Source: Neckera pumila
Taxonomy: Eukaryota; Streptophyta; Bryopsida; Hypnales; Neckeraceae
DNA: 64,000 nt
NCBI GenBank assembly: GCA_963969595.1
Contig: OZ018408.1
Coordinates: 49,973,022-50,037,021, forward strand
Direction of reading: 5' to 3'
Shown here: one piece after another, positions 32,055-50,949 of the stretch
Position numbering within the stretch: the stretch's first letter is position 1
How the letters are laid out: each line of letters begins with the position of its first letter
Translations under genes and position numbers: made by a program
The notes under the pieces: generated by a model
Told to the model about the DNA's origin: nothing
Database searches by the model: none
Seen by the model: the letters and a program-made list of their open reading frames with translations, nothing else

Positions 32055-34828
32055 CTAGGCAGCCTCTCTGCTTTTCTTAGGAATAGTACGTGATTTTGGG
32101 TTCACTTTCTTGGACCAATTGGCATACAATGCACAAGTTGCGTCCACCCAAGTGGGAGGCTTGTTCTCCACAACCCATTTCCCGTACCAACAATTCTGGT
32201 ACATCAATTCCAAGTTACTTTCAGAATTATCTGGTCACCAATACTGGAGCATGAACTTCCTATTATTCTCATGCCTTTCCTCTCTGCAGACATCGGACAG
32301 TGCTCTTCCTTACCAGACAGCATATACTGAGGGGTCCTCAGGTCTAAGCAGAACCCATGAACCCGGTTGAATATCAACCCAAGTATTAAAGCTTTCCCTT
32401 GGCGCCTCATTTGCGGGTCCCCAATAAGGTTCAAATTCCTCTTCTTCTGGAACCATGTCGACAGGGTTGATGGTCGGCCGTTGGCAAGCGGATTCCTGCA
32501 ACCTCCAATCGTACTTTGGCCAAAAGCCTTCCACCAATTCCAAAGGGCAGTTGGGAAGGGACTCCTTGAGCTCCTGCAATACACATTTCCAGTAATCAAC
32601 GTACGGCGCAAAGGCGGCCGCAAACCCCTCGTATTTGGACATTCCGTTTCGCCAATACTCAATGTACTTCTCGATTCCTGATAGAATCAAACCCTTGCTT
32701 AAGGTCGCTTTCCTTGCTGCCTCCACTGCCTTCTTTTTATTTCCTGTGGATTCCGCAACTTCGCTATCCCACATAGGCTTCAAAGGAACAAGCTTAGGGC
32801 AATCCCGAGGGAGTGTCACATGACCCATGCGGTCTTTCTTCCACAGGCATCGAGAAGGTGTATCTGATGGTAGCCACTGTGAATCTACTGCAGACTTTTT
32901 GTACTTCATGACGGGGATTCCATCACCATCCACGTAGAACCCGAAAAGGTGCATCTTCCCCAAACCAATTAGTTTAGCCGTGCCACTGCAGAGGTATCCC
33001 TTCACGAAGGACTTGAAATCCGCCACCTCTTGGATGAATTCAGGCATGAATGACAATTCTTGGGACTCCATGAACGACTTCATGAGGTCTGCGACAACAA
33101 ATGTATTCTTGCTCTTTAAAGGCTTCGAGAGGTGGCTAAAATACGCATCAATATCTTCGTGAGTATGTCCGACTAGAAGGAAACCGACCTGAATTTCCTT
33201 GAAGACTCCTCGCGCAGTAAGCAAAGACAAGAACGCCATGAGGTATTGGTTCTTGTTATCCTTGGCGGAGTTGTCAAGCTGAAGATAGAGCTTGCTAGGA
33301 AGGGGACTAGATCCACGCCGAACTTCCTGTGGAATCAATTTCAAGGCGTCCATACATCGAGATTTTCCTTTGAGTAGCGCGTCGAACATTGCATTTGTAG
33401 GTGGATAGGGAAAGAGGTCGCCCGTCTCCCGCATTGGTGGACCTTCAAGTCGCCTGAACAGTCTAGCCAGCGATGAAATGGTGAAGTTTGAGTCGCCCGG
33501 CCAGCAGGCTAGTGCATAATGCGCATACGCACCATCGGCATGACCATGAGCCACCATTCCAGTTATACTCATGGGAAGCTGACCCAAACCTTGTATAGCC
33601 TTCGTCGTCACCCGCATTTTTGGAAGAGCCGTCTTCCTTGTGTCCATCTTGTCATGAATAATGCACAGTATCTCTTGAGGGTTCTTCCTGGATTCCTTAC
33701 GCCACGAAGCATACAGATGACGGCAGGATGCTTGATGATTAAGGTGTTCAGTTCGTTGCATCATGAATTCCACGAAGTCCGAACTTCCTTTTGGTGATTT
33801 CAGAATGAACTGCTGCAGTTCGTCGCATTCCGTACACTTCGCAAAAGAGCTACCAACAGGCTTAATCGAGATGTTGTTGAAGTGCTCTTTCTTTATTCTA
33901 CTAACCGTTGCTTGGCTCACTGGAGGAAGGCCATACTCCACATTCAACTACGATTTCCGAAAAACAGAAGCAGAAGCCACGGAGGCAGTAACACTATGAG
34001 AACTGATAAACGAACAGGAGCAAAGAGAACAGTAACAATGAGGACAATGGATTACAGGGATCAACAACGGGATATATCCCGCTGAAAAGATGACTGCATT
34101 CAAGTCCTATAGCAAAACGTATGAAGAGGTATTCAAATGAGAGAACCATCCAAATGAAGTACCCATGGAGTACTGTATCCTGGAGATGTCCAACAGAGGG
34201 AAAAAACTTAGTGAAGGCCATATACAGAAGTTCAACGGGATATGTCCCGTTGACGTAGCAGTCCGACAAATCCATCAATAATAAAAAACAACAGAAGGAG
34301 AGTTCATGGAACTACCTCATTGGCATCAGCATGAACGCGCTTCCAGTTGTTCCCAGCAGGCAGGAACTTAAGCGTATCCACTCTCCCATTTCCAATGCAC
34401 CACATTTGGTACAGCATCTGGTTAGCAGTGCTGTCGATGATCGCTTTCATTGTACTAGTGACTTACACCGTTCGAAGTGGAGGCCGCTTAACCCCTTTGT
34501 TTCCGTGTGTAGATGAAAGAATGCCTTCCTTCTACTTGTCAATGTAATTGTGATAGGTCGACTTCGGTATTCCGTGAATAATGTACCACGTTGTAGCACA
34601 GACTTCCACTTCTTCCAGCGTAATGTACTTCCGCTTCCGTGTCCACTCCACAGTATGCAATTGTCCACCAACTGCAATTTCATACTCTCGACGCTCTTCA
34701 AATGGTTTTGAGAAGTATCTCTGCCTGACCTTCAGCGATTTCTCACGCGGAAACAGTTGGCAGCAATGACTATCGCAGCAGTTCTGCGAGCTTATCTTCT
34801 AAATTTCAAAGTCCGTCGTCTTCCGCAT
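32055..34828 (-). pseudogene. DUF7869-like transposon protein, broken by five in-frame stops
   Basis: Two exons in one frame: 34828-34316 and 33947-32055, joined GAG|GTAGTT to CGTAG|TTGAAT. The N-terminal part has a Cys-rich segment (QNCCDSHCCQLFP). The main exon has CIIHDKMDTRKTALPKM, then LQLDNSAKDNKNQYLMAF, then VGHTHEDIDAYFS. This pattern (I.DKMD, QLDN..ENKN, GHTHEDID) is that of DUF7869-type proteins common in transposons. The three acidic clusters could be a DDE-type catalytic set, which is inference. The C-terminal region (SWVLLRPED...YW) looks like a small reader-type domain. In-frame stops: TAG 34799-34801, TAG 34532-34534, TAA 34463-34465, TAA 32310-32312, TGA 32235-32237. Family-like sequence continues after each, up to a final TAG at 32055. 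The longest uninterrupted stretch is 545 codons (33947-32313). The first TAG could instead lie at an intron edge. Confidence 0.65.
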
Positions 34829-36200: not shown

Positions 36201-36593
36201 TGCACGGATCTGGTATACAGCATTCACTACGTATTATAGTCTGTACTCGTAGTCTACGGTCGTATACGGTACAAGAGGCAGACAACTACACTATTACGAC
36301 TTACGACTTCGTTGCTTTCGCCACTGACGGAATGACCAGGACCGTCCTACACTGAAGAAAACAACATTATAAGCTTCCATTGCTAGCGGTATGCACAGTA
36401 CCGCTTACAGCACTGTGCCCAGCAAACGATTCTATGCACATTCTACACTACTTCGGCATTGCAGGCACTTATCCTCTTTCACCAATTAGCACTCATGTGA
36501 TACGCAACTAATGCTTAAGTATCAAACTCAAAGGACTTGATGTGTGGACAGTCAAATCATTGTAGAAGGTGACCTTCCGGCCATTCCTCACTG
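36201..36593. other. Spacer between the two large transposons
   Basis: No open frame of note. The 10-bp sequence TTCCTCACTG at 36584-36593, just before the next element, recurs at 48742-48751. Confidence 0.5.
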
Positions 36594-36611
36594 GGGAAAC
36601 TTAGTAGTGTG

Positions 36612-36635
36612 AGCAGAGAGCAGAGAGCAAAGTTT
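36612..36635. repeat. Left subterminal GAGCAGAGAGC array
   Basis: Short tandem 'gagcagagagcagagagcaaag', inverted relative to the longer array at 48659-48725. These are candidate transposase-binding repeats of the 12.1-kb element. Confidence 0.6.
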
Positions 36636-39600
36636 GGAAAGCAGAGAATCAAATTTTTGTAATCAATTTTGACAAAAAGAGTGCCTATTACCGTGGAATC
36701 TAGAATTATTTTAAGCCAAATTTGTTTAAAGTGTACCCCAATTTTGTGGAATTTCAAAAAACATTTCACGAGATTTTTTAAAAGATACCCCAATACCGTG
36801 GATCTTCGAAAAATATTTCTCAAGATTTTAGAAAATGCACCCCAATTTTGTGGAATTCTTACATCTAATTAAATCTAGTAGCAAATAAAACCTTAAAGGC
36901 GTGGTACACTGAATTTCTAATGAAAGACTTTGTAAAATTGGTTTTAGGTAGTGTAAATATGCAATTAGGGCTGACGTCATCAAAAGAGGCTTACAATCAA
37001 ACAAAAATCCAAGAAAAAATACAAGGAGACTTGCAAGGATACATGTAAATATAACCCAAACCCAACTCATATAAAATCCAAATGAATATAAAGCATAGGA
37101 ATTTAGGTCACAAAATCCAAAAAGCTCCATCAACGGCTAGAACTACCACTATCCTCGCCTTGCTTCGCCTTTAGATGTATGTAATCCAAGACACGCTTAT
37201 TGAAACTGCGTGCACGAGGAGGGGGTGGTGATAGTGCCTCTGCAAATTGATGCGCAATCCCACTAGCATATGAAGGGAGCTCAAATGCCTTAGGAGGACT
37301 TGCAAACATGTCCGTAGTGAGGACATGAATCGGACTCTCCCTTGGAACTCTGAACAGTCAAGAAAAATAAATAAATAAGTAGAAAAAAGAAACAAAGAAC
37401 GGAGAAGAAGAAATTGCAAACAAACAAAGAAAAATGCAAAAAACAAACTTACACACAGAGCAAATCAAAGTTGCGCTTTGTCATCTTCTGAGGAGGCGGA
37501 GCAAAAACAGACCCTCGCGGTCGGGCAACCTGACAAGAAGTAGTCTCTGGGTCAGGGTCTCGCATGGAGAGGAGGATGGCGTCGAAGATGTCCAAATCCG
37601 CCTCAAGAGCCACAATATGGCGCTGAAGTGCACGGCACGCAATAATGGAACCACCTAAATCATTTAGAATCAAATTGTGAGAAGTTGTAATACAAAGAAA
37701 TAAAGTAGTGGGAAGAGGAAGATTGAAAACCAAAGAGGTTGAAAACAAACCTAGACCACATTGCCAATCCATCACAATGTCATCTTTGTCGGTGAGGGCA
37801 GAAAAAAGGATGGAATAAAACTCGTGACGTTTCTCACGAGCACCTCTCCAGGGCATGCCATCCTCCCTCATAGCCTGATTCTTCTCATCCGTGAAACTGT
37901 TGAGCCAACCATCCCTCTGGAGGTTGTAACCCATCTTATCAAAAGCTGTGTTCCGTATCTTAAGAACAGAATTAACCCGAACTAACACTTTGATGAAGAA
38001 CTTGCGAGTCTGAAAAAATGAATTCAAATGTGTTAGTATCCATAAATCCACAAAACTCAATTGAATTTGAGATAGAGTAGAGGGAGAAAAACTTACTACT
38101 CCGGTAGGAACCATGGGCGACTGAAGGTCCAGGTCATTCATGCCAAACCAATCTTCAGCCACATAGAAGTTCATAGTGTGTGCCCAGTTGTGGATATCCC
38201 TCGATATATCAGGATCAGCAGCATGAGTGAAGACAAGAATGCCGTTGTCATGGAGGTTGGCATCTGCAAAGGCAAATAGAACCTCAAAGTATGAAGTAGA
38301 CCGCCTGTTCCAAGTTGGAACATCATCTAAGGAGGTAGAGATCCGTGGCACACGTAAGTTCTCGGGCACATCTGCAAAAAGAAGATCGATGCCCATGTGA
38401 ACCTTTTCCTTGGCATTGGATCGAATACGACCTGCTCCAACCTACACAGAGAAATTGTTGTGAAAACTTGAAGAAATAAGAGAAATTAAATCTTAGAAAT
38501 AAGAATGAATGCAATGGAAAGAGAAATTGTATATAAACCTTAGTTAGGAACTCTTGAATGCGAGTGTAGGCTGAATGGCGAACCCCGTTGTTCATAAGCT
38601 GTTCAATGACATCCACCATGTCCACATTCTCAATTAGGGTGAGCATAGAGGGCTTCTCTGAGGAAGTGGCTGAAGTATCTGGTGCAATTGCCTTTCGCTT
38701 TCGCGGCTCAGAGGGGATGGTGATGTCGCTTTGAGAAGGAGCGGGGGCTGGGTCGGCAGGAGCAATGGAAGGGGTGAAGGATGGAGCAAAGGAGGGAGCA
38801 ACGGAGTGACTTCCAGCGACTGCAGTGTCGGGAGCAGAAGAAGGAGGTGCTGAACCCTTGGAAGCAGAGCGAAGGGACCTACGGGGTTGAGAAGGCTGGG
38901 TACCTGAGGCTGTGCCAACTAACTTGCCCTTTCTGCCCTTGGACACATTTACTGGCTTAGTCGCCTTCTCCTTCCCTTTCTCCGTCGTCTCCGTTGGTAG
39001 AAGCTCCAAGTCAGAAGGATGATCAAGCACCGGAGTTGTAGCAATCAATGAAGAGTGAAGTGCTACCTCAGAGAGGGGGATAAAACCCCTAGAACAATCA
39101 ATATACCAACCACAAGCCTTGAGGTGGGGATCTAGGTACTTGGCAACCTGTGTCTCCGTATACATGAATTGGGTAGACTCCAAATTCACCCAATCTTCCA
39201 AGTAAGGTGGTAGAAACAATGTAGAAACAGCTTGCTTGGGAACAAGCTCTTGGAAGATGTACCTGAAATATAAGGCAAAGACTAGTAAGTGAAAAGTAGA
39301 AAGAGGATACGAATAGCAAAGAGAAGGTGCAAGATGGATGCAAACCTGTAAATCACACGTTGTACAATCTGGCGACCATCAAACTCATTTAGGTCAGAGG
39401 CTTTGAAGAATCTTGGATCTGCATTATTGTCAAAGAACTGCTCAAAGGCTGTGTCCAATAGAAAGATCCTCCAGCGGTCAACAAACTCTGCAAGCCGTTA
39501 TACACCCACGGAGACATTCCAATAAATGGGTCGAGTAAAGCTTGACTCCATGGAAGCAAATTCCTCTACCACAGCATGCTCTAGCTGCATTACCACAAGT

Positions 39601-41549
39601 AGAAAGTAAGAATTCCAAAGTCAAAATGGTACAAAACAAATTGAAGAAGGGGAGAGTAGTTAGAAAATGGACCTGAGCCCAAAAAGACGCTTTGTTTAGC
39701 CAAATGTCAAGAACCTTCTCCTTAAGAGGCACTATGGAGGGGAACTTGTTACCGCCACGAACAGTAGGGGAGGAATTCCACCACCGGAGCCAGGCCGTCT
39801 TGAAGCGAGGTTGGACGTTAGCTGTGGCAATCTTATGGAGCTTTTCAATTGTCATGTCGGGGACGGTGTTGGTGGAGAAGTGCCGATCAATGTAGAGACA
39901 AGATCCATGGTTAAAAATATGAAAAGGAATGTTGAAGTGGAATGCGACAAAATTGAATAAGAGAAAAGGGAGAGGATAACCTCGTCAAAGAATGCTAGCT
40001 CGTGATGCGAGTTTGCTACGGCAACGTACTTCTCAAAGCTCTTTGTACGAATAAACTTTCTAGCCTTCTCTTTTGCTGAGGTCATGGCCTTCCAAATACC
40101 CACAGCAATCCTCTGATTCACTGGTGTTGCATCCTTGTAAGCTAGAGCGGCAACATCAGCAGCAGCCGAGATTTCCCTCTGGTGAGTAGAAATGTTAGCC
40201 CATGCAAATTGCAAGAGTGACAACCAATAAGAAAAGCAAATAGATGAAGGATTACCTTGTAGAGGAAGGAAACGAAGACGTCCATCGTGAGAGGGTACCA
40301 TGTGGAAACCTTCGACTTGGCGGTAGCACATGCCTGATAATCGTCCTTGGAAATCAAGTCCGCAAATGCCTCCAAAGGCAAGGCACCAAAAGTGCGGATG
40401 CGAAGGAGTTTTGCTGGCACGCTAGACTTGACGTGGTCGTTTTCAGTTGACCTATGCAAAAGATTGGCACGCGTAAAGCAAACAAAATTTGAAGGTGACA
40501 AAATCATGAAGAAACCAAAAAGGGGGCAGAACTTACCAGTTAACATCGTTCATGGCGTTCATGAGAACACCACTGTTCTTTCGCGCATCCAAGGCAATGC
40601 AGTGCGGAGAAATATGCCAGGACTCCTCCGTAGGATGAAACTTATTAATATGGCGGTACCAAGCTGTGAGACGATGGTTGCCCTCCCAAACAAAGAGCAT
40701 CTTGCCAACCATATGAGCAAGGTCATCATCCTGCGCCATGAGTGAGTCGAACCGCTCACTAGTAGTCTTCCAGAGTGGACTCCACCTAGTGACGATATCC
40801 TCGGTGACGTCGACAACCTCGTCCTTGTTGTTGTAGATCGACACGTAAAGGACGCGGTCACCATCACGGTAGCCAGTGACAAATTCATTCTCCAATCGTT
40901 GAACATCAACCTCATTAATTGGACGCACAAGAGGCAAGGCATGCATTCGGCAAAGGGGAATGCAAAGGCGGGACTTATTTGTGGGCCGAATTCGAAGGCG
41001 ATTAATAACTGCAGTTGAGTCGGCCTTCTGCTGCACTTGAAGTTGATTCTCTTCTATGTCGGGATCAGCCTTCTCCTCTGGTTCGGCATAACGTAGTAGC
41101 GGAGTTGGAGACTAAAACCAACACAAGGTTTATTATTGAGCAGATCAAATACCAGAACAATTAAATAATCAAATACGCAATGTTTATAAATGGAGTTTGA
41201 GTACAATGATTCTAGATGCAAGTGCACATAGAAAGAATAGCATGCTATTCAAAATTGGATGTACATTAAGGAGCACTAATAGTAAATAATGTAATGGATA
41301 GAGATCCATCACTGAATCAAGGAGCATATAAGTGCAGAAACTAAATGGGTATAATTCCAAACCAATTACCTCTTGTCCCCCAGTAGCAATGTCATTGGTC
41401 ACTACTACAGATGTTGGCATAGGTGGCTCCTGAGCTAAGACAGCTTGAGACAAAACAATCTCCAAGGGTTGTGAAAGGTCCATCACTCCAGACTCCTGTC
41501 AAAAGGAGGCATGAATTAGAACAGAGATACACACTAGTGGAGAACCCGG

Positions 41550-43077
41550 CGGAACCGCGGGGTTCATTAGGAGTGTCTCAAATGGAATTGAAAAACTAGT
41601 ATTTTCATTGAAATGGCAACAGCAACTTTGAAAAAAGGCAAAATTACAAAAAAAAATTGGAATTTCCTAATACTCTTTGTAGTCCACTTAGAATTGATCT
41701 ACAATAGAACAAATAAGCACAAAACTATTGAAAATGAACAAAAAAAAGCAAGATAGGGCAGCCCAAAGGAACCTTGTGAAAACGCAGGGTTTTTGAAAGA
41801 GTAATCAGAATTCAGAAATTAAAAACAAATGAAGAAAGGGCATGGCCTACCGGAACCCCGCGGTTCCGCCGTATTCCTCCAAATGGTGCCCGAATCCATT
41901 GTGCATACAAATGAAACCCTAAGTGCAAGGAATCCTAAATTCTGTTTGCGGTATATCTGGGAAGTAAGCTTGGTTGTCACTATGCGTAGCCAAATTGGAC
42001 AACCCCGCGGATCCGCAAGGTTCCTCCAATTAATGCCTCAACCAACTACGAACATGATTGAACACATGAAACCCTAATTGCAAAGAATTTAAAAATTGCT
42101 TGCATTCAAAAAACTCTGCACTGTAGCCCCTGAAAAGCTGTAATGCGGCGTTTGTTAGCAACCAATACTGCTCGGCCGATTGTAAGCACGGCCAACAATG
42201 GCACTTGTAAGCACCGCGCGGCCTGAAAATTGTGCGGCCAACAGTATGCACGGCTGAATTGGTTGAACCCCGCGGTTCCGCGGGGTTCCCCTAGGTGGTG
42301 CTGCAACCTTTCCTAAAACCCTAACTGTGAATCATTGCAGAATTGCGCTTCTGTAGAATTACAGCATGAAGGAAGGCGCCTCAAAAAACACCCGCATGCA
42401 AGCTAAACCCGAACTGCACAGCACAAATTTTCAAAGCAAAGAAGTTCGGACTAACCTCTAGAGCCGCGCACAAAGCATTGCCGCTTGATTCCACAGCAAC
42501 GCCATCCGTCTCTCCATCGCTCGCCATTGTTCTCCGTTGATAAAAAATGCCCTTCTTTGCCACTCGTCTCCCTTCTTCTACGTCGTCTTCATTCTCTTCC
42601 TCTCCTTCATGTCCGTCCACTTCATCCATCTTTTCATCCTCTGTCTACAAAAACAACCCAAAATAGCAATTTTTTCTTTAGCAATTTCACCAAAAACTTA
42701 CTATATTTAGTAAATTTTTGGTAGCCCCATAGTCCCCCCGGGGAGACGTCGAGACAGTTGGGGAAAATTTTTCCAAAACTAAAGGAAAACGGGGTTGACG
42801 GGTCATAAGTTTGGCCACTTAGGATAGAGACCGTGACAAAGGGATAAATAAGTTATCCACCGTAGGTATCACAGCCTATTTTTACCTGAAATTGATCCTA
42901 TTGTGTTGTGACAGGGGGCCCGTCACGACACAACATGTCGTGATGTCACGATAGACCACCCTACCTTCACCTCCACTCATGCATGCATAAGATCAAATGG
43001 ATAAGAATTCCACTTCTATAAATAAAATTGAAGAAGGAGGACCGGTGGAGGTAACCCGCCGGAACCGCGGGGTTTCC
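41550..43077. repeat. Five GGAACC/GGTTCC palindromes in introns 1 and 2
   Basis: Copies at 41550-41565, 41851-41868, 42001-42024 (partly decayed), 42265-42288 and 43060-43077. The core is GGAACC-NNNN-GGTTCC with a GC spacer such as CCGC or GCGG. The copy at 42265 is GAACCCCGCGG-TT-CCGCGGGGTTC, with perfect 11-bp arms. Four copies lie in intron 2 (41496-42455) and one in intron 1 (42645-43317). Confidence 0.8.
42888..42953. repeat. Overlapping hairpins in intron 1
   Basis: TTGTGTTGTGAC pairs with GTCACGACACAA across a GC-rich loop, and CACGACA then pairs with the following TGTCGTG. Two mutually exclusive stems are therefore possible. Confidence 0.6.
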
Positions 43078-43677
43078 TCACCTTGCCCTCCACGGCTCTA
43101 GTAACCCTAATGAACTCTATGCGTGACTAGTGCAAAGCTGTGCAAAGACTTACATTACAACCGCGAAGCCACGGATAGCACCCATGGAGTTGCAAATTGC
43201 AATCATGAAGCGCATGAGGAATAGAAGCCCGTATGCAACAAAGGAAACCCGCGCATTCACTAAAATTTAAAAAACCAATAATCCCATTAGCTAATATAAC
43301 AATTGAGTTCAACTTACCATGTTGACAAAGTCCTCCCTTCTTTCTTCATTTGAATCAGTCTGGTTTGAATTGGTACGCTGCTTGCTCTTAGCCATTGCTG
43401 GTGAGGGTGAACTTCTGCTCTTCACTTCTTCCTGGATCGGCACAAGGTTAAGAACCCGAATCATACACCTTGCTCTCCAAGCACCACCTACTTCCTCCTC
43501 AACTGGCTTGCGTAAGTCTGAAGGTGACCCTCGTCCCTCTATGCTCAATAGCTCCTTCTTTTTCAACTCGTTTCGCCTCTTCTGCTTCGAGTTGGTAAAA
43601 GTCGTGCCGCCTCTTCTTTTCTTGCGCTTCCGCGTTGGATCAATCGCAGAGATTGTATTGTGGCCTGATTCCTTCAT

Positions 43678-44401
43678 GTGTGCGTCTTGCCAACCTTACA
43701 ATGCCCGCACATCACCCTTGCACTCTCACGACATCAAACGCCTCTCACAAAAGATGATCCCTCACTAAACTTTTTTTGTCTACATAATGCTACTGCATGC
43801 GGTTTAGGGTTTTCCGATGTCTAATAGCTGTACATTATAACATCACCATTAAGAAGATATTAAACCAATTATAAACTAGGCTATTAAACGGTGTCCTCCA
43901 AAAAACAATTGGCGTCTGCAAGATTTTCTTCTAGATTGACCAAGCTCTTGATTACTCTGTTCCACTATTAATATGGCAACTATTCCAATTGTAGGACAAG
44001 ATTGTCTGTCATTACAGAAAGTTCATGATGTATTTGGTGCCTCCGCTCTAATTCAAGAAATTGGTGTTCATCAATTCTACCTAACTATTAAAGCTACCTG
44101 CTTTAGATGATGCCAACGGCTTTATTAATGACTGCGCCATTTACAATATTTCTAATTCCTTCTAATTCTTTGTCAGAATCATAATTATTATGGGATCTAT
44201 CAATAGTGAATGATCAATTATTCATAGATAATACAAAATGCTTAAACTCCGAGTTGCTCTTCCGTATTGCCTCTCTTTGCAAACCTTTAATTTCTTTCTC
44301 ATTGTTGGTCATCAAACTCTCCTTCTATCTATTTGCTTTCTTGTGATTATTGATGGCATTGCCCTCTGTAGTCTACGCTTAGCTTTTCCTTCTCTTTGTC
44401 A
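43678..44401. promoter_or_regulatory. Divergent intergenic region between the two genes of the 12.1-kb element
   Basis: The minus gene's ATG (43677) and the plus gene's ATG (44402) face away from each other across this 724-bp AT-rich interval, so it should hold both promoters. I cannot place specific sites. Confidence 0.45.
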
Positions 44402-47400
44402 ATGGCTTCATCTTCCATTGTTTCTGCAATGGCTAAGATGGCTGAGCTCCGTGCGCATGGCCTTGGAGTCTCTATTCTCATTCCTATAGGTGAAGATGGA
44501 TTTGCATTAGTCTCCGCCCTTCACCTTAGCATCAGATTCTCTTTTCAGGTGAATACCATTTGGGTTGAACGTGAGATTTTTGATCCTGCTACATCTTTGC
44601 TTTCCGTAACCATGCGTGAGAATTCTAGCCTTGCCAAAAATGGATCAATGGTCTGGGAGTTGGGCGCTGGCAAGTACAGGGTCTATGGGCTCACTGAATC
44701 TCAAATGGGGGTAACGACTGAAATTCTTACCCCATTCCAATCGTCTACTTACACGTTGAACACCCCTCCATTAGTGAGAGTTAAGAGTGAGCCTGGTGTG
44801 CAGCTAATCATTGATCTATCTGATTCCTCCGATGAAGATGCACTCACTCGCCTTACTCCTCTTGTGAATCCTATTTGTTTGTCCAAGACTCCCACATTTG
44901 TCACCCCGTCTCTCTTTTGCCCTGAACCTTCAAATCCTCAAGTACCCTCTTCATCCAAATCTTCTAATTGCATTGTTCAATGTCTACGTAGACTAGGTTC
45001 TATGCCCGGTAGTAAAAACATCCTCAAGAAGTTAGATTACGATAGATTGAAAATTGAAGAAGTCAATTACCTTCCCCCACGTTTTGATGGTACTCAAATG
45101 TTTGTCCTTCCTCCGGTTGGAGCCTCGTCTTCTCATACCAAAGCCAAATCCATGGAGGGCATGGACAAGCGATATGATGGCCATGTCTGGACCAAGACTC
45201 AAACCACCAACATTAGCAACAACCTTGGTCTTGTATTCCGCTCATCAACTTGCGTTGGCCACCTTCAGTGCCAGAATCAAAACTGCGACTACCTTCAACG
45301 TACTCATCGAACCTCCACGGTGAACGATACCGACTTCCAAGGCTTTACCAAGGATCTCTTCGCCATTGGTGGTCCCTCGCCAACCAACTCCACTCTTGTC
45401 TGCAGGATTTGCAAGGAGCCACCCAAGTGCCTTGAACTTTGCGATGCTAAGATCTTCTATGTCCACAGTAAAGACTCTTCTCAGCGAGGTTGCATTCATA
45501 TCGGCACCCATCGGCACCCCGTCAAGGTTGGTGATTGCAGAGATAGCCGCAAGCGCATCGATAGACTTATTGAAGAGCACGTTGAGAGGATGCCCCAAGC
45601 CACGCATAGCAAAATTGTCCTTGAGGCCAGCAAAGAACTTGTAGGTGAGTTCCTCCTTTGCGATGATAATGATGCACATCAACTTCTTTCATTAGAAGAA
45701 CTAGAGCCCGTCTTTGATCGCTGCAAGGAGTTGAATTCTCCTCACCTCCGCAATAAGGTTACGACCTTCAAATACATGCGTAGATTAGGAGTCATGGATG
45801 GCATTGCTAAACTTAGGGGAGTTAGCACTTGGGCCTACGTTCAGCGGAATCAATTTCCAGGCCAAGGTGATGAAGCAGATAAAGTCTTCGTCTTCAAGAT
45901 GTCCGAGGTTGGACCCGGTAGTGGAGTCGATTTGGTTCATCGCATGCAACCAGGTGGAGATCTTGAGCATGCGTGGATCATGTTTGATCATGTCAAGCGC
46001 GTCTCCAAATGGACCACCATGGCCTGCCATGTCTACGATGGGACGTACCAACGCATCATGACCATTGCTTGTTGTGACTTCCAATCTGAAGACAAAGATG
46101 CTCAAGTGCTTTTTTGGCATAACCTCAACCATGTCATGGCTCGGCACGGAATCCCAAAGCCATACTTCAAAGGATTCATGGCGGATAGTGCACAAGCCAA
46201 TTGGAATGCCTTGCACATCATCTACGGCTGCGGAAATCCCAAGGTTCCCATCGAAGGTCGCGAGAGGACGTGCTACTTCCACTGGACCCAATCCTTAGAG
46301 AAGCACACCAAGCTATATATCAAGCACGACTTGCAAGACCAACACAAGCGTCTTTGCCTCCAGTACCGCGACGCCTCGTCTATGCTGGAAGCAGACACAA
46401 GGTACCTTGCTATCAAAGCATGGTGGGCATCATCAAATTGCACCTCTGAGGATGGACTAAGGCATCTTCAGCTTTGGTTGGCCTTTTGGCACTTCCGCTA
46501 TTGACAATGGGGTGGCTTCATGGAACTGGTATGTTTGTTGACTTATCAGTTATCACTTGATGTTTTACTCTTTACTTCTTTCCTAACCTTCTCAGTTTTT
46601 TATGCAACCTTTATTTTGTACAGGAGAAAATCATGATGGCTGAGGAGTTTGCAGAGATGCCTAATTGCAACCTTGCCGAATCCATTCACAACAAATGGCT
46701 TCAAGCGTCCGGCAACAAGGGTGGCGATCTCTATGTGGCAACTGTAGACGATTATGTTCGAGCATTCCTCCAAGTTGTGGCTTACCATCAATTTCTGAAA
46801 GGTGGCGTTGGCGGAGATGGCCCTAGCAAAGAAGAACTCAAGCTTAGATGCGCTCAACGTCGGGCTCAGCGAACTGGCGATCCGATGGTGCTGCAAAAGG
46901 TTCTCCTTGACATGCCTGGCGGTGACAGATTCTGCACACGCAATCCACACCTCGAAGGCGGCGAGGTCTTCGGATCACAGAAGCGCAAACCTGACACTCC
47001 TATTGGAGCCGATGAAGATTCTCACCGCCCCGACACTATCAATTTCTCTCGCCCGCATGTTAGTCAGAGAAATACAAGATCTCATCCTACACCTCTACCT
47101 ACAATTGTCGAGGAGTCCTCCCTGTTTGTGCAAGAGGTGACGCCTCCTTCACCTATTGGATTGGATGTCCGTCGCATCACAGCCATTCAAGAATTTAAAG
47201 TTGACGAGAAGCTGTGGCATATTGCTCGCCTTCCTTGTAATTCTGGAAAGTCTTGTTGGGCTATGCACGCTGTCACTAAGAAGAAATGTACTGCCAAAAT
47301 CGTCTCCAATGGCAAGAGCACCCCTGCTCCAACCTACTCCGGATTTTGGAACCATTACTCATTCACAAGACCAAGACCCGAGAAGTTCTTCTTCTGCTCA

Positions 47401-48081
47401 GACGACATTGAGCGTTGTGTGAAAGGCTCGCGTCGCAAGTGGGTGGACAATTTCTCTGCAGACCAGGAAAGACCTCCAATTCCTTCCGTGTGGCTTGTGA
47501 AGCTTGGCACTAACCTCACTCGCCCGGAGATCTTGAAGCTCGAGAATGCCGGCTTCCAATTACCACAGAAAGAGCGCATAACTCCAACACAACTATTCAA
47601 CAACTCTGCTCCTCCTCTCGACCTCTCCGGTGTGGATGTTCCACCGAATCCTGACTTTTACCCTGTTTCAAGGCAATCTAAGTCTACGCGACGCTCCACC
47701 CACGTACCATCAGCAAAGCAGATGCAGATGGTCGCATCCGCTCATGCAATGCAAGGAACCATCTTGAAGGTAACAATGATTCCTCGCCCTGGATTTGGGT
47801 GTGTTATCAATTTGCAGTCCAAACCTGCTCCAACACAATCAATTTACCAACTTACAGTGAGCTCCCTCCCCGATTGCACTTGCCCGGCCTTCAAAGACAT
47901 GATTACCAAATTTGGCCGCAAACGACATTTGTTTCTACATTGTAAGCATTTATACTTTTTGTTTGTCAAGGTCTCTAATTTAGATCCAGAAGTGAACTTG
48001 TTCATTCATACCCCAACCTTTAGCTTCAATGAGGTTAAACTCATTCTTGAAGGGGGCCTCTTGACACATTCTACCATCTAG
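44402..48081 (+). pseudogene. MULE-type transposase with C-terminal SWIM zinc finger, one in-frame stop
   Basis: Two exons, 44402-46528 and 46624-48081 (intron CTG|GTATG...TACAG|GAG), about 1194 codons. Cys-rich DNA-binding region near residues 285-400: CVGHLQCQNQNCDY, CRICKEPPKCLELCDA, then GCIHIGTHRHPV. Catalytic core: VYDGTY (Asp546), GFMADSAQANW (Asp595), then ERTCYFHWTQSLEKH. Exon 2 resumes with NCNLAESIHNKWLQ. Near the C-terminus DCTCPAF...LHCKH is a SWIM finger (CxC...CxH). TGA at 46502-46504 interrupts HFRY-QWGGFMELE, and homology-like sequence continues without a frame change, so this is a nonsense codon; CGA to TGA would explain it. I start at ATG 44402, because the open frame upstream has no other ATG. 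The family is found in transposons of non-seed plants and streptophyte algae, as I recall it. Confidence 0.8.
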
Positions 48082-48658
48082 ACTCATTGCCAGCCTAGGA
48101 TTACTTTATCTTCATATGAATGTAGTCATTTGTTGACCTCACAAGTTTTTGCTATCTACTCCCTTGAGAAAAAAAATTTCGTATTTTATGATTTTTATTC
48201 ACCGCAAGTCATTGGATTACTATAATTGTTGCCATGTGTTTCTCACATTTTTTCACTCTACATGCTAATCTGTAAACCTTCCAAATACACCAATCTCTTT
48301 AATTCCTTCTCAACTTCATCCTCCGCATAAGTTCAATTTTGCGTTTCCCAAGTCTCCAATTAAATCACAAGTTTACAAATTCAGACCTTCATTGTGTTTT
48401 AGGCCATCAAATTCCACGGTGATAGGTCACAAAAATTAATTATTCTGAGTTTTTTGGGCCTTAAACTAAATCAAAAGTTTGGAAATTTAGAAATTTTAGA
48501 TGCCCATTGATTTTTTTTGCCCTCTAATTCCACGGTAATAGGTCATAAAATTTTTACTAATTTAAGGAAAACCTTGAATATTCTTTAGAATATTCGAATC
48601 TGTCAATAATAAAATCTAAAAATAATAAAAAAATAATTTTTTTTTTTTTTTTGGGCCA

Positions 48659-48725
48659 CTCTTTGCTCTCCGCTCTCTGCTCACCGCTCTCCGCTCACCG
48701 CTCTCCGCTCTTTGCTCACCGCTCA
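48659..48725. repeat. Right subterminal GCTC(T/A)CCGCTC array
   Basis: About nine units of GCTCTCCGCTCACC type, inverted relative to 36612-36635. Confidence 0.75.
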
Positions 48726-48751
48726 CATAGTAGTGTCGTCCTTCCTCACTG

Positions 48752-49969: not shown

Positions 49970-50135
49970 AGGGTTTCAAGGTTTAGGATTTAGGGCTTAG
50001 GGTTAGGGTTCAGGGTTTCAAGACTTCCAGTTTAAGGTTCAGGTTTCTACATTCAGGTTCATTGAGTTCAAAATTAAGGTTTTCTTACATATTTGGAACA
50101 ACTGTAAACGTACTTCAGTTTAGGGTTAGTGGGTT
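49970..50135. repeat. Degenerate telomere-type (TTTAGGG) tract
   Basis: Irregular units of TTAGGG/TTTAGGG/TTCAGGG type, such as GGGCTTAGGGTTAGGGTTCAGG. It is interstitial, since ordinary sequence continues on both sides. Confidence 0.7.
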
Positions 50136-50219
50136 TAGGGCACTTAATAATGTGAACTTCACTAATTTTTGGTTGCTACATGGTTTGGTGTGATTTCTAT
50201 TAAACTAAAATCTTTAGTA

Positions 50220-50885
50220 TCCCCTTCTAACATACTTAGTATTGGCTTAGTGGGTGGGTGGGTCAGTGGGTGGTACAAAAAATATAAGGAAGTTGAACAT
50301 CTTTTCTTTGTCCATACATTTTACAATACGTAAAATCATACTTGTATTATAATTTATCTTTTTCAATATGTATAAAGACAAATACATATATATATTCTAA
50401 TATACTTAGCATAGGCTTGGTGGGTGGGTGGGCCAAAAAATAAAAGGAAGTTCAAAATCTTTTCTTTGTCCACATATTTTACAGTACCTAAAACCATGGT
50501 ATTGTAATTTATCTTTTATAATACCTATGAAGACAAATATATTTATATATTCTAACATACTTAGCATAGGCTTAGTAGGTGGGTGGGTGGGTGGGACAAA
50601 AAATAAAAGGAAGTTGAAAATCTTTTTTTAGTTTGTCCATACATTTTACAGTACCTAAAACCATGGTATTATAATTTATCTTTTATAATATCTATGAAGA
50701 CAAATATATATATTTATATATTCTAACATACTTAGCATAGGCTTAGTAGGTGGGTGGGTGGGACAAAAAATAAAAGGAAGTTGAAAATCTTTTCTTTGTC
50801 CATACATTTTACAGTATCTAAAACCATAGTATTAGAATTTATCTTTTTCAATATCTATAAAGACAAATATTTATATTTTTTTATA
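50220..50885. repeat. Tandem satellite, about four units of 160-175 bp
   Basis: Each unit has TCTAACATACTTAGCATAGG, a GGTGGGTGGG run, 'aaaaaataaaaggaagttgaaaatcttttctttgtcc' and 'tatgaagacaaatat'. Units start near 50225, 50395, 50551 and 50725. Confidence 0.85.
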
Positions 50886-50949
50886 GAAATGACTGGCATG
50901 TAATTCCATTTTATTATTCTTTTCCTTCTTCATAAGTTTTAAACTTTTG

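What the first reader, a model, noticed from the sequence alone, without database searches (positions are those of the whole stretch)
36594..48741. A 12.1-kb MULE-like transposon that carries its own ParB/DNA-methyltransferase-like gene
A 10-bp direct repeat (TTCCTCACTG) flanks a unit with inverted subterminal repeats and an exact inverted CCTATTACCGTGGAAT. The unit holds a SWIM-type MULE transposase and, divergently, a multi-exon gene with ParB-like and methyltransferase-like segments. Mutator-like elements with a second gene are known (MuDR mudrB), but a DNA-modification-type partner would be unusual. Such a gene could protect, mark or silence-proof the transposon; that is inference.
Basis: partly seen in the sequence, partly recalled or inferred. 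Interest (0 to 1): 0.9.

Follow-up and report, generated by a model that had tools for sequence, protein, structure and literature searches.

The report
Two-gene transposon with methyltransferase-like partner
This is one of about thirty near-identical copies of a 12-kb jumping gene that carries, beside its transposase, a conserved second gene built from parts like those of bacterial DNA-marking enzymes, which the element may use to protect or mark its own DNA.

Summary
A 12,148-bp DNA transposon (36594-48741) lies between two copies of TTCCTCACTG. Ten further copies fetched from the same 339.5-Mb genome align over its full length at 97.8-98.7% and share its ends; 7 of 10 have their own exact 10-bp target-site duplication. 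Close copies of the second gene sit beside a divergent transposase in 29 of 29 cases, and two sister families, 31-62% identical by domain, show the same gene pair. The second gene (13 exons, about 1,283 aa) ends in a domain homologous to beta-class N6/N4 DNA methyltransferases (three-family profile: DpnA, 1.3e-6), but catalytic motif IV is degenerate ([DN]-[VI]-P-x). 'ParB-like' rests on motifs; no profile supported it. The transposase is MULE-like by motifs and 10-bp duplication, but no Pfam model matched. This copy is dead: private nonsense codons in both genes. ParB-methyltransferase genes opposite a transposase are already in print for a brown-algal Sola1 element, with similar proteins cited for green and red algal transposons (PMC12477816). 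New here: the MULE-like carrier, the scale and the eroded active site. Whether all related elements carry the partner is open.

The parts
36584..36593 (.). left target-site duplication TTCCTCACTG
48742..48751 (.). right target-site duplication TTCCTCACTG
36594..48741 (.). whole transposon, 12,148 bp
   Evidence: same ends, up to 2 substitutions, in 10 of 10 further copies
36594..36637 (+). left terminal inverted repeat GGGAAACTTAGTAGTGTGAGC followed by GAGAGC-type hexamers
48656..48741 (-). right terminal inverted repeat (read on the minus strand GGACGACACTACTATGTGAGC) with GAGAGC-type hexamers
36684..36877 (+). left subterminal motif cluster: CCTATTACCGTGGAAT plus three 52-bp tandem units with [CT]GTGGA cores
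   Evidence: exact cores counted in 11 copies (3 or 4 per copy)
48411..48542 (-). right subterminal motif cluster, two inverted copies of CCTAT[TC]ACCGTGGAAT
   Evidence: two exact cores in 10 of 11 copies, none in the eleventh
37130..43677 (-). second gene, 13 exons: 43677-43318, 42644-42456, 41495-41370, 41111-40537, 40451-40256, 40178-39981, 39891-39673, 39584-39346, 39262-38539, 38441-38097, 38009-37751, 37654-37453, 37349-37130; about 1,283 aa
   Evidence: assembled by eye and script; GT-AG across 11 copies with five single-copy exceptions; tblastn segments of two sister families break at most of the same places. Start codon not proven
40537..41111 (-). ParB-like segment (exon 4), motif order IPLCRM ... 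VRP ... DVxRLExEFVxGY ... RVLYVS ... VWxGNHRLxAW
   Evidence: conserved across families; no profile hit
37453..38441 (-). methyltransferase-like domain (exons 10-12): motif IV position FADVPE, SAM-site position IVMDWQCGLGGS, motif II position ALEAD
39498..39500 (-). in-frame TAA in exon 8, private to this copy among 11
39892..39893 (-). acceptor of exon 7 reads AC, not AG, in this copy alone of 11
44402..46528 (+). transposase exon 1 (DDE core part; D of MFDHVKR, D of FMADSAQ, C(2)H of RTCYFHW)
46502..46504 (+). in-frame TGA in the transposase, private to this copy among 11
46624..48081 (+). transposase exon 2 (candidate E of NLAESIHN; SWIM-type CTC...HCKH)
   Evidence: the E stretch is missing from the third sister sequence

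Best explanation
The feature is a copy of a two-gene (MULE-like) DNA transposon family. Gene 1, on the plus strand, is a DDE-type transposase with a SWIM-type motif. Gene 2, divergent, encodes a large protein with a ParB-like segment and a methyltransferase-fold domain. Gene 2 is a long-standing working part of the element, not a captured fragment, because its sequence looks constrained across families and it stays next to the transposase. Most likely mechanism (inferred): gene 2's product binds the element's own DNA, probably near the repeats at the ends, and marks or shields it, thereby opposing host silencing or aiding transposase access. Because motif IV is eroded, I favour a SAM- or DNA-binding factor, or an altered methyltransferase, over an ordinary adenine methylase. 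Likelihoods: two-gene element with a conserved partner 0.9; acts on the element's own DNA against silencing or as a mark 0.45; catalytically methylates DNA 0.35. The copy in the window is inactive.
For: Shown: shared ends and own duplications in further copies; 29 of 29 close copies and 4 of 4 copies at 76-81% have a divergent transposase within 20 kb (one of the four at 15.7 kb); two sister families with the same divergent pair; third codon positions low (0.32-0.42 identity) while second positions keep 0.57-0.79 in both genes, the pattern of purifying selection; methyltransferase homology from a three-family profile: DpnA 1.3e-6, CcrM 0.0057, MboIIA 0.015, Pfam N6_N4_Mtase hit by 3 of 3 members, best 1.2e-7, the window's own only 0.026 and below the curated cut-off, PHROG methyltransferases to 1.1e-9, the window's own best 0.0045, and 124 phage records matched by one sister sequence, most of the annotated rows among the 40 listed naming a methylase or methyltransferase. 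Inferred: self-directed action, from analogy with the published Sola1 partner, bacterial ParB-methylase fusions and VANC proteins that bind tandem repeats in non-coding parts of their own elements (abstracts).
Against: No binding, methylation or expression data. Motif IV is not canonical in any of the three families. The ParB-like segment has no profile support. The codon-position test uses protein-guided alignments, which favour first- and second-position identity. Within the family the variants are mostly private and close to neutral (N/S relative to neutral 0.81 for gene 2 and 0.98 for the transposase; shared variants 0.71, not significant, and 0.47, p 0.036), so recent selection on gene 2 is not shown. 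107 of 150 listed transposases had no listed partner (capped lists). 11 of 22 distant methyltransferase hits had no listed transposase. Right-end repeat cores are missing from one of 11 copies.
Confidence: 0.65

Rival explanations
1. Gene 2 is needed for the transposition chemistry itself (an mudrB-like helper: end binding, synapsis or reintegration), not for silencing escape; the methyltransferase fold is a structural relic.
For: A two-gene layout recalls MuDR (recalled); motif IV eroded; conserved partner.
Against: The SAM-site region stays recognisable in three families, which a pure relic need not do.
Confidence: 0.25
2. Gene 2 is an active N6-adenine or N4-cytosine methyltransferase that marks the element, as proposed in print for the algal ParB-methyltransferase partners.
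For: Homology to DpnA, CcrM, MboIIA and phage methylases; published proposal; [DN]-[IV]-P recalls NIPY/NLPY of KsgA/Dim1 N6-adenosine methyltransferases (recalled).
Against: The aromatic residue and first proline of motif IV are missing in all three families examined.
Confidence: 0.3
3. Gene 2 is a captured host gene or fragment (Pack-MULE type) with no role.
For: MULEs capture genes (recalled; gene capture by plant transposons is the topic of PMC13317346, seen only in the listing).
Against: Gene 2 is spliced, looks constrained and is shared by sister families; same side and orientation in 29 of 29 close copies.
Confidence: 0.04
4. The unit is a chance pairing: transposase element beside an unrelated host gene, with fortuitous short repeats.
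For: In the window alone the repeats are short.
Against: 10 of 10 fetched copies have the same ends, 7 of 10 exact own duplications.
Confidence: 0.01

Closest known systems
ParB-methyltransferase accessory gene of the Sola1-1_Ec32 transposon of Ectocarpus (PMC12477816, passages seen); similar proteins cited there for green and red algal transposons
   Same: Opposite strand to the transposase; ParB-like plus N4/N6 DNA methyltransferase domain; 1,104 aa against about 1,283 here; large DNA transposon (21.5 kb)
Bacterial ParB-methylase fusion (Bacillus cereus Bce_0392; PMC5512222, passages seen)
   Same: ParB-type domain fused to an adenine methylase
   Different: Prokaryotic; the ParB part there is reported to nick DNA, untested here
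VANDAL elements and VANC anti-silencing proteins of Arabidopsis (PMC5735166, PMC10398659; abstracts and section lists seen)
   Same: Mutator-type element (recalled) with an extra gene; repeats in non-coding DNA
   Different: The abstracts do not describe VANC as ParB- or methyltransferase-like; VANDALs lack terminal inverted repeats (recalled)
DIRS retrotransposons with Dam-like adenine methyltransferases, and DNMT-bearing retrotransposons (PMC5890265, passages seen)
   Same: Transposon-borne DNA methyltransferase
   Different: Retrotransposons; Dam-like or cytosine methyltransferases; no ParB part mentioned in the passages
MuDR of maize (mudrA/mudrB; recalled)
   Same: Transposase plus second gene
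   Different: mudrB not known to resemble gene 2 (recalled, not compared)

Membership tests
Mutator-like elements (MULE) | 8-11-bp target-site duplication | tested here: met
   10 bp exact in the window and in 7 of 10 further copies; 3 of 10 had none
Mutator-like elements (MULE) | DDE transposase with C(2)H between second D and E | tested here: inconclusive
   D92, D158 and C187xxH190 of the first row are kept in 3 of 3 rows; the E of NLxE (291) in 2 of 2 rows that have that stretch, absent from the third; signature itself recalled; no fold test
Mutator-like elements (MULE) | match to a Pfam MULE (PF10551) or SWIM profile | tested here: not met
   no Pfam hit up to E 10 for the three-family set or the window pieces; by eye none of the 23 PF10551 places coincides with the 150 places
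Mutator-like elements (MULE) | terminal inverted repeats | tested here: met
   short and imperfect; beyond 500 of 500 shuffles, nearly the same in 11 copies
beta-class N6/N4 DNA methyltransferases (PF01555) | homology over motif X/I/II SAM region | tested here: met
   by the three-family profile and the sister members; the window sequence alone stays below the cut-off
beta-class N6/N4 DNA methyltransferases (PF01555) | catalytic motif IV [DNS]PP[YFW] | tested here: not met
   DVPE, DIPK, NIPD in three families aligned with SPPY/DPPY of two phage enzymes
ParB/sulfiredoxin superfamily | profile match | tested here: not met
   no ParB hit; the hhalign test used a narrow Bacillus set and is weak
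ParB/sulfiredoxin superfamily | fold match | tested here: inconclusive
   AlphaFold2 mean pLDDT 39.5; no fold search was run
ParB/sulfiredoxin superfamily | GxxR-type motif in strand-helix context | tested here: inconclusive
   GNHR in 10 of 11 rows, VNHR in one; motif recalled; strand-helix context only from the low-confidence model
Transposon ParB-methyltransferase accessory proteins | gene opposite to the transposase within the element, ParB-like plus methyltransferase | tested here: inconclusive
VANC-type anti-silencing system | binding to own repeats and loss of methylation | not testable with these tools
   only the repeats are seen

The most novel reading that the evidence does not exclude
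A very large MULE-like transposase clade in one eukaryotic genome has kept, over deep divergence, a ParB-methyltransferase-fold partner whose active site has eroded: the protein has turned from a DNA-modifying enzyme into a sequence-specific self-recognition or anti-silencing factor reading its own family's end repeats, a VANC-like solution reached from a prokaryotic-type modification protein.
Probability: 0.2. Interest if true: 0.85.

Novelty: new variant of a known kind. Interest (0 to 1): 0.6.

Why it matters
Accessory genes with prokaryotic-type DNA-modification parts seem to have been recruited by unlike eukaryotic transposons: a Sola1 element and other algal transposons in print, and now a MULE-like clade. 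A genome with 29 close 12-kb copies and many sister places makes the question 'does the element mark or protect its own DNA?' directly testable by long-read methylation calling on young copies.

Tried and rejected
Rejected: chance repeats, or a host gene beside a transposon. Rejected: reading the D of 'YDGTY' as the first catalytic residue; the distant family has N there, while the D of MFD is kept in 3 of 3. Rejected: position 280 of alignment A4 as the third acidic residue; it is an alignment artefact of a gap.

Led nowhere: searches for the ParB-like segment; hhalign against a Bacillus-only ParB set, too narrow to be a fair test; AlphaFold2 on the ParB-like exon, pLDDT 39.5, so no fold search was run; protein database search for gene 2, none at E up to 1 among 7,990 scored candidates; the same kind of search was not run for the transposase; Rfam on the window, nothing. 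The within-family selection test was inconclusive. An empty site was not looked for: no such search was sent. The host was not identified.

Literature: searches cover only the open-access library; I saw titles and abstract beginnings of the listed part (for example 20 of 38 papers, 10 of 25) and recognised no paper on a ParB-methyltransferase gene in a MULE. PMC12477816 stood already in the list and was recognised only later. PMC6446971 was only searched for six terms, with no occurrence. Iyer et al. 2011 and Petroll et al. 2025, cited by PMC12477816, were not seen.
Full report
What is there. The 10-bp repeat TTCCTCACTG occurs exactly twice in the window, at 36584-36593 and 48742-48751, and encloses a 12,148-bp unit. 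Its ends read GGGAAACTTAGTAGTGTGAGC on the left and, inverted, GGACGACACTACTATGTGAGC on the right, followed inward by GAGAGC-type hexamers; the alignment of the 67-bp ends beats 500 of 500 shuffles. Farther in lie inverted CCTATTACCGTGGAAT copies and a left array of three 52-bp units with related cores.

Proof that it is a transposon. A search of the window's own genome (339.5 Mb, 18 contigs, unnamed) with the first half of gene 2 listed 28 places at 94-99% identity over exon 4, including the window, 4 at 77-84% and 6 at 40-54% (68 of 1,042 candidates scored, so lower bounds). I fetched 10 of the other close copies completely. All 10 align along the whole element at 97.8-98.7%. The terminal sequences were found in all 10 (2 substitutions allowed), and 7 of 10 have an exact 10-bp flanking duplication, each of different sequence; 3 of 10 have none. 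I did not look for an empty site.

The genes. On the minus strand 13 exons (43677 down to 37130) join in frame into about 1,283 codons; the start codon is a guess. In 11 aligned copies, the window included, splice sites are GT-AG with five single-copy exceptions, one being the window's AC acceptor of exon 7. On the plus strand a two-exon transposase runs 44402-48081. The window copy has one private nonsense codon in each gene. Of the 11 copies, 3 have an open gene 2 and 3 an open transposase, none both (splice mutations were not assigned to copies).

Gene 2: methyltransferase part. Alone, the window sequence gives only weak hits (Pfam N6_N4_Mtase 0.071; PHROG methyltransferases from 0.0088; DpnA 0.21). 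Aligned with two sister families, the profile finds DpnA at 1.3e-6, CcrM at 0.0057 and MboIIA at 0.015. All 3 members hit N6_N4_Mtase, best 1.2e-7; the window's own member reaches 0.026, 14.9 bits against a cut-off of 26.7. Phage methyltransferase families reach 1.1e-9 in the best member and 0.0045 in the window's. One sister sequence matches 124 phage records, best E 9e-8 in an unannotated record. The strongest aligned region is the SAM-binding block around 'GD-VLD'. At motif IV, where two phage enzymes have DPPY and SPPY, the three families have DVPE, DIPK and NIPD. So homology is established for the family group; ordinary catalysis is not.

Gene 2: ParB-like part. Exon 4 keeps IPLCRM, VRP, DVxRLExEFVxGY, RVLYVS and GNHRLxAW-type stretches across families, in the order expected of ParB/Srx domains (recalled). 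No library supported it, the Bacillus-only hhalign test gave nothing and the fold model is unusable. I therefore call it ParB-like by motif.

Transposase. The D of MFD, the D of MAD, C-x-x-H and CxC...CxH are kept in 3 of 3 families; the candidate E (NLxE) in 2 of 2 that have the stretch, the third sequence lacking it. These and the 10-bp duplication fit the Mutator superfamily (signature recalled), but no Pfam model matched, and the Pfam MULE places of the genome are others. I call it MULE-like, not a proven MULE.

Co-occurrence. I paired 55 methyltransferase places (one per copy, from a list that was cut off) with the 150 transposase places (150 of 623 candidates scored). 29 of 29 close copies and 4 of 4 at 76-81% have a divergent transposase within 20 kb. 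Of these 11, C8:5266358 may borrow the transposase of a neighbouring element and C2:7268638 lies 17 kb off; of the 11 without, one (C1:19468679) does have a transposase, seen directly. In reverse, 43 of 150 listed transposases had a listed partner and 107 did not; because both lists were capped, the share of partnerless elements is unknown. Two sister elements fetched in 13.5-kb stretches have both genes divergently; both carry stops.

Selection. Between families, codon third positions keep only 0.32-0.42 identity while second positions keep 0.57-0.79 in both genes, as expected under purifying selection; the alignments were protein-guided, which exaggerates the contrast. Within the family, variants are mostly private and near neutral, as expected of dead copies.

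How it may work. The conserved partner, its place inside the element and the end repeats suggest a protein that acts on the element's own DNA. The end-repeat core CCGTGGAA was found once in one sister stretch and not in the other, about what chance gives; their ends may be incomplete, so whether the repeats are family-specific is open. The published proposal for the algal partner is binding and epigenetic modification of the own sequence (PMC12477816 passage). VANC proteins of Arabidopsis VANDALs bind repeats in their own elements and cause loss of methylation (abstracts). The eroded motif IV makes me favour a binding or shielding role over plain methylation, with low certainty.

Novelty. Transposon-borne adenine methyltransferases are known in DIRS elements (PMC5890265 passage), a bacterial ParB-methylase fusion is known (PMC5512222 passage) and a ParB-methyltransferase accessory gene opposite the transposase is known in a Sola1 element. 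In nine literature searches (listings, partly capped) I recognised none in a MULE. I rate it a new variant of a known kind.

Noticed in passing
window 32310-33947 (-): 545-aa open frame with Pfam DUF7869 (PF25273, E 4.6e-44), next to the element; possibly another transposon-type gene.
   Followed up: no
window 41543-43074: Six dispersed 22-bp repeats related to AACCCCGCGGTTCCGCGGGGTT within the first introns of gene 2.
   Followed up: no
window 49980-50900: Repeated AT-rich units with GGTGGGTGGG tracts, and telomere-like GGTTTAGGG stretches just right of the element (seen by eye).
   Followed up: no
G000 C1:22776674 and C1:22809255: Two copies 33 kb apart have identical scores and stop patterns, suggesting a recent segmental duplication that carried the element.
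   Followed up: no
G000, 150 rows: The transposase clade is very large: 150 scored matches from 100% down to about 52% identity, with 54 rows in the sixties.
   Followed up: partly
transposase alignment A4, profile positions 319-364: Weak match to eIF1 chains (E 0.019), unexplained and possibly chance.
   Followed up: no
L002 3101-3337: Stretch 34% identical over 80 residues to the transposase N-terminus lies 1.3 kb from a Pfam MULE hit (E 8e-8 in a search of 8 loci); a possible link to recognised MULEs.
   Followed up: no
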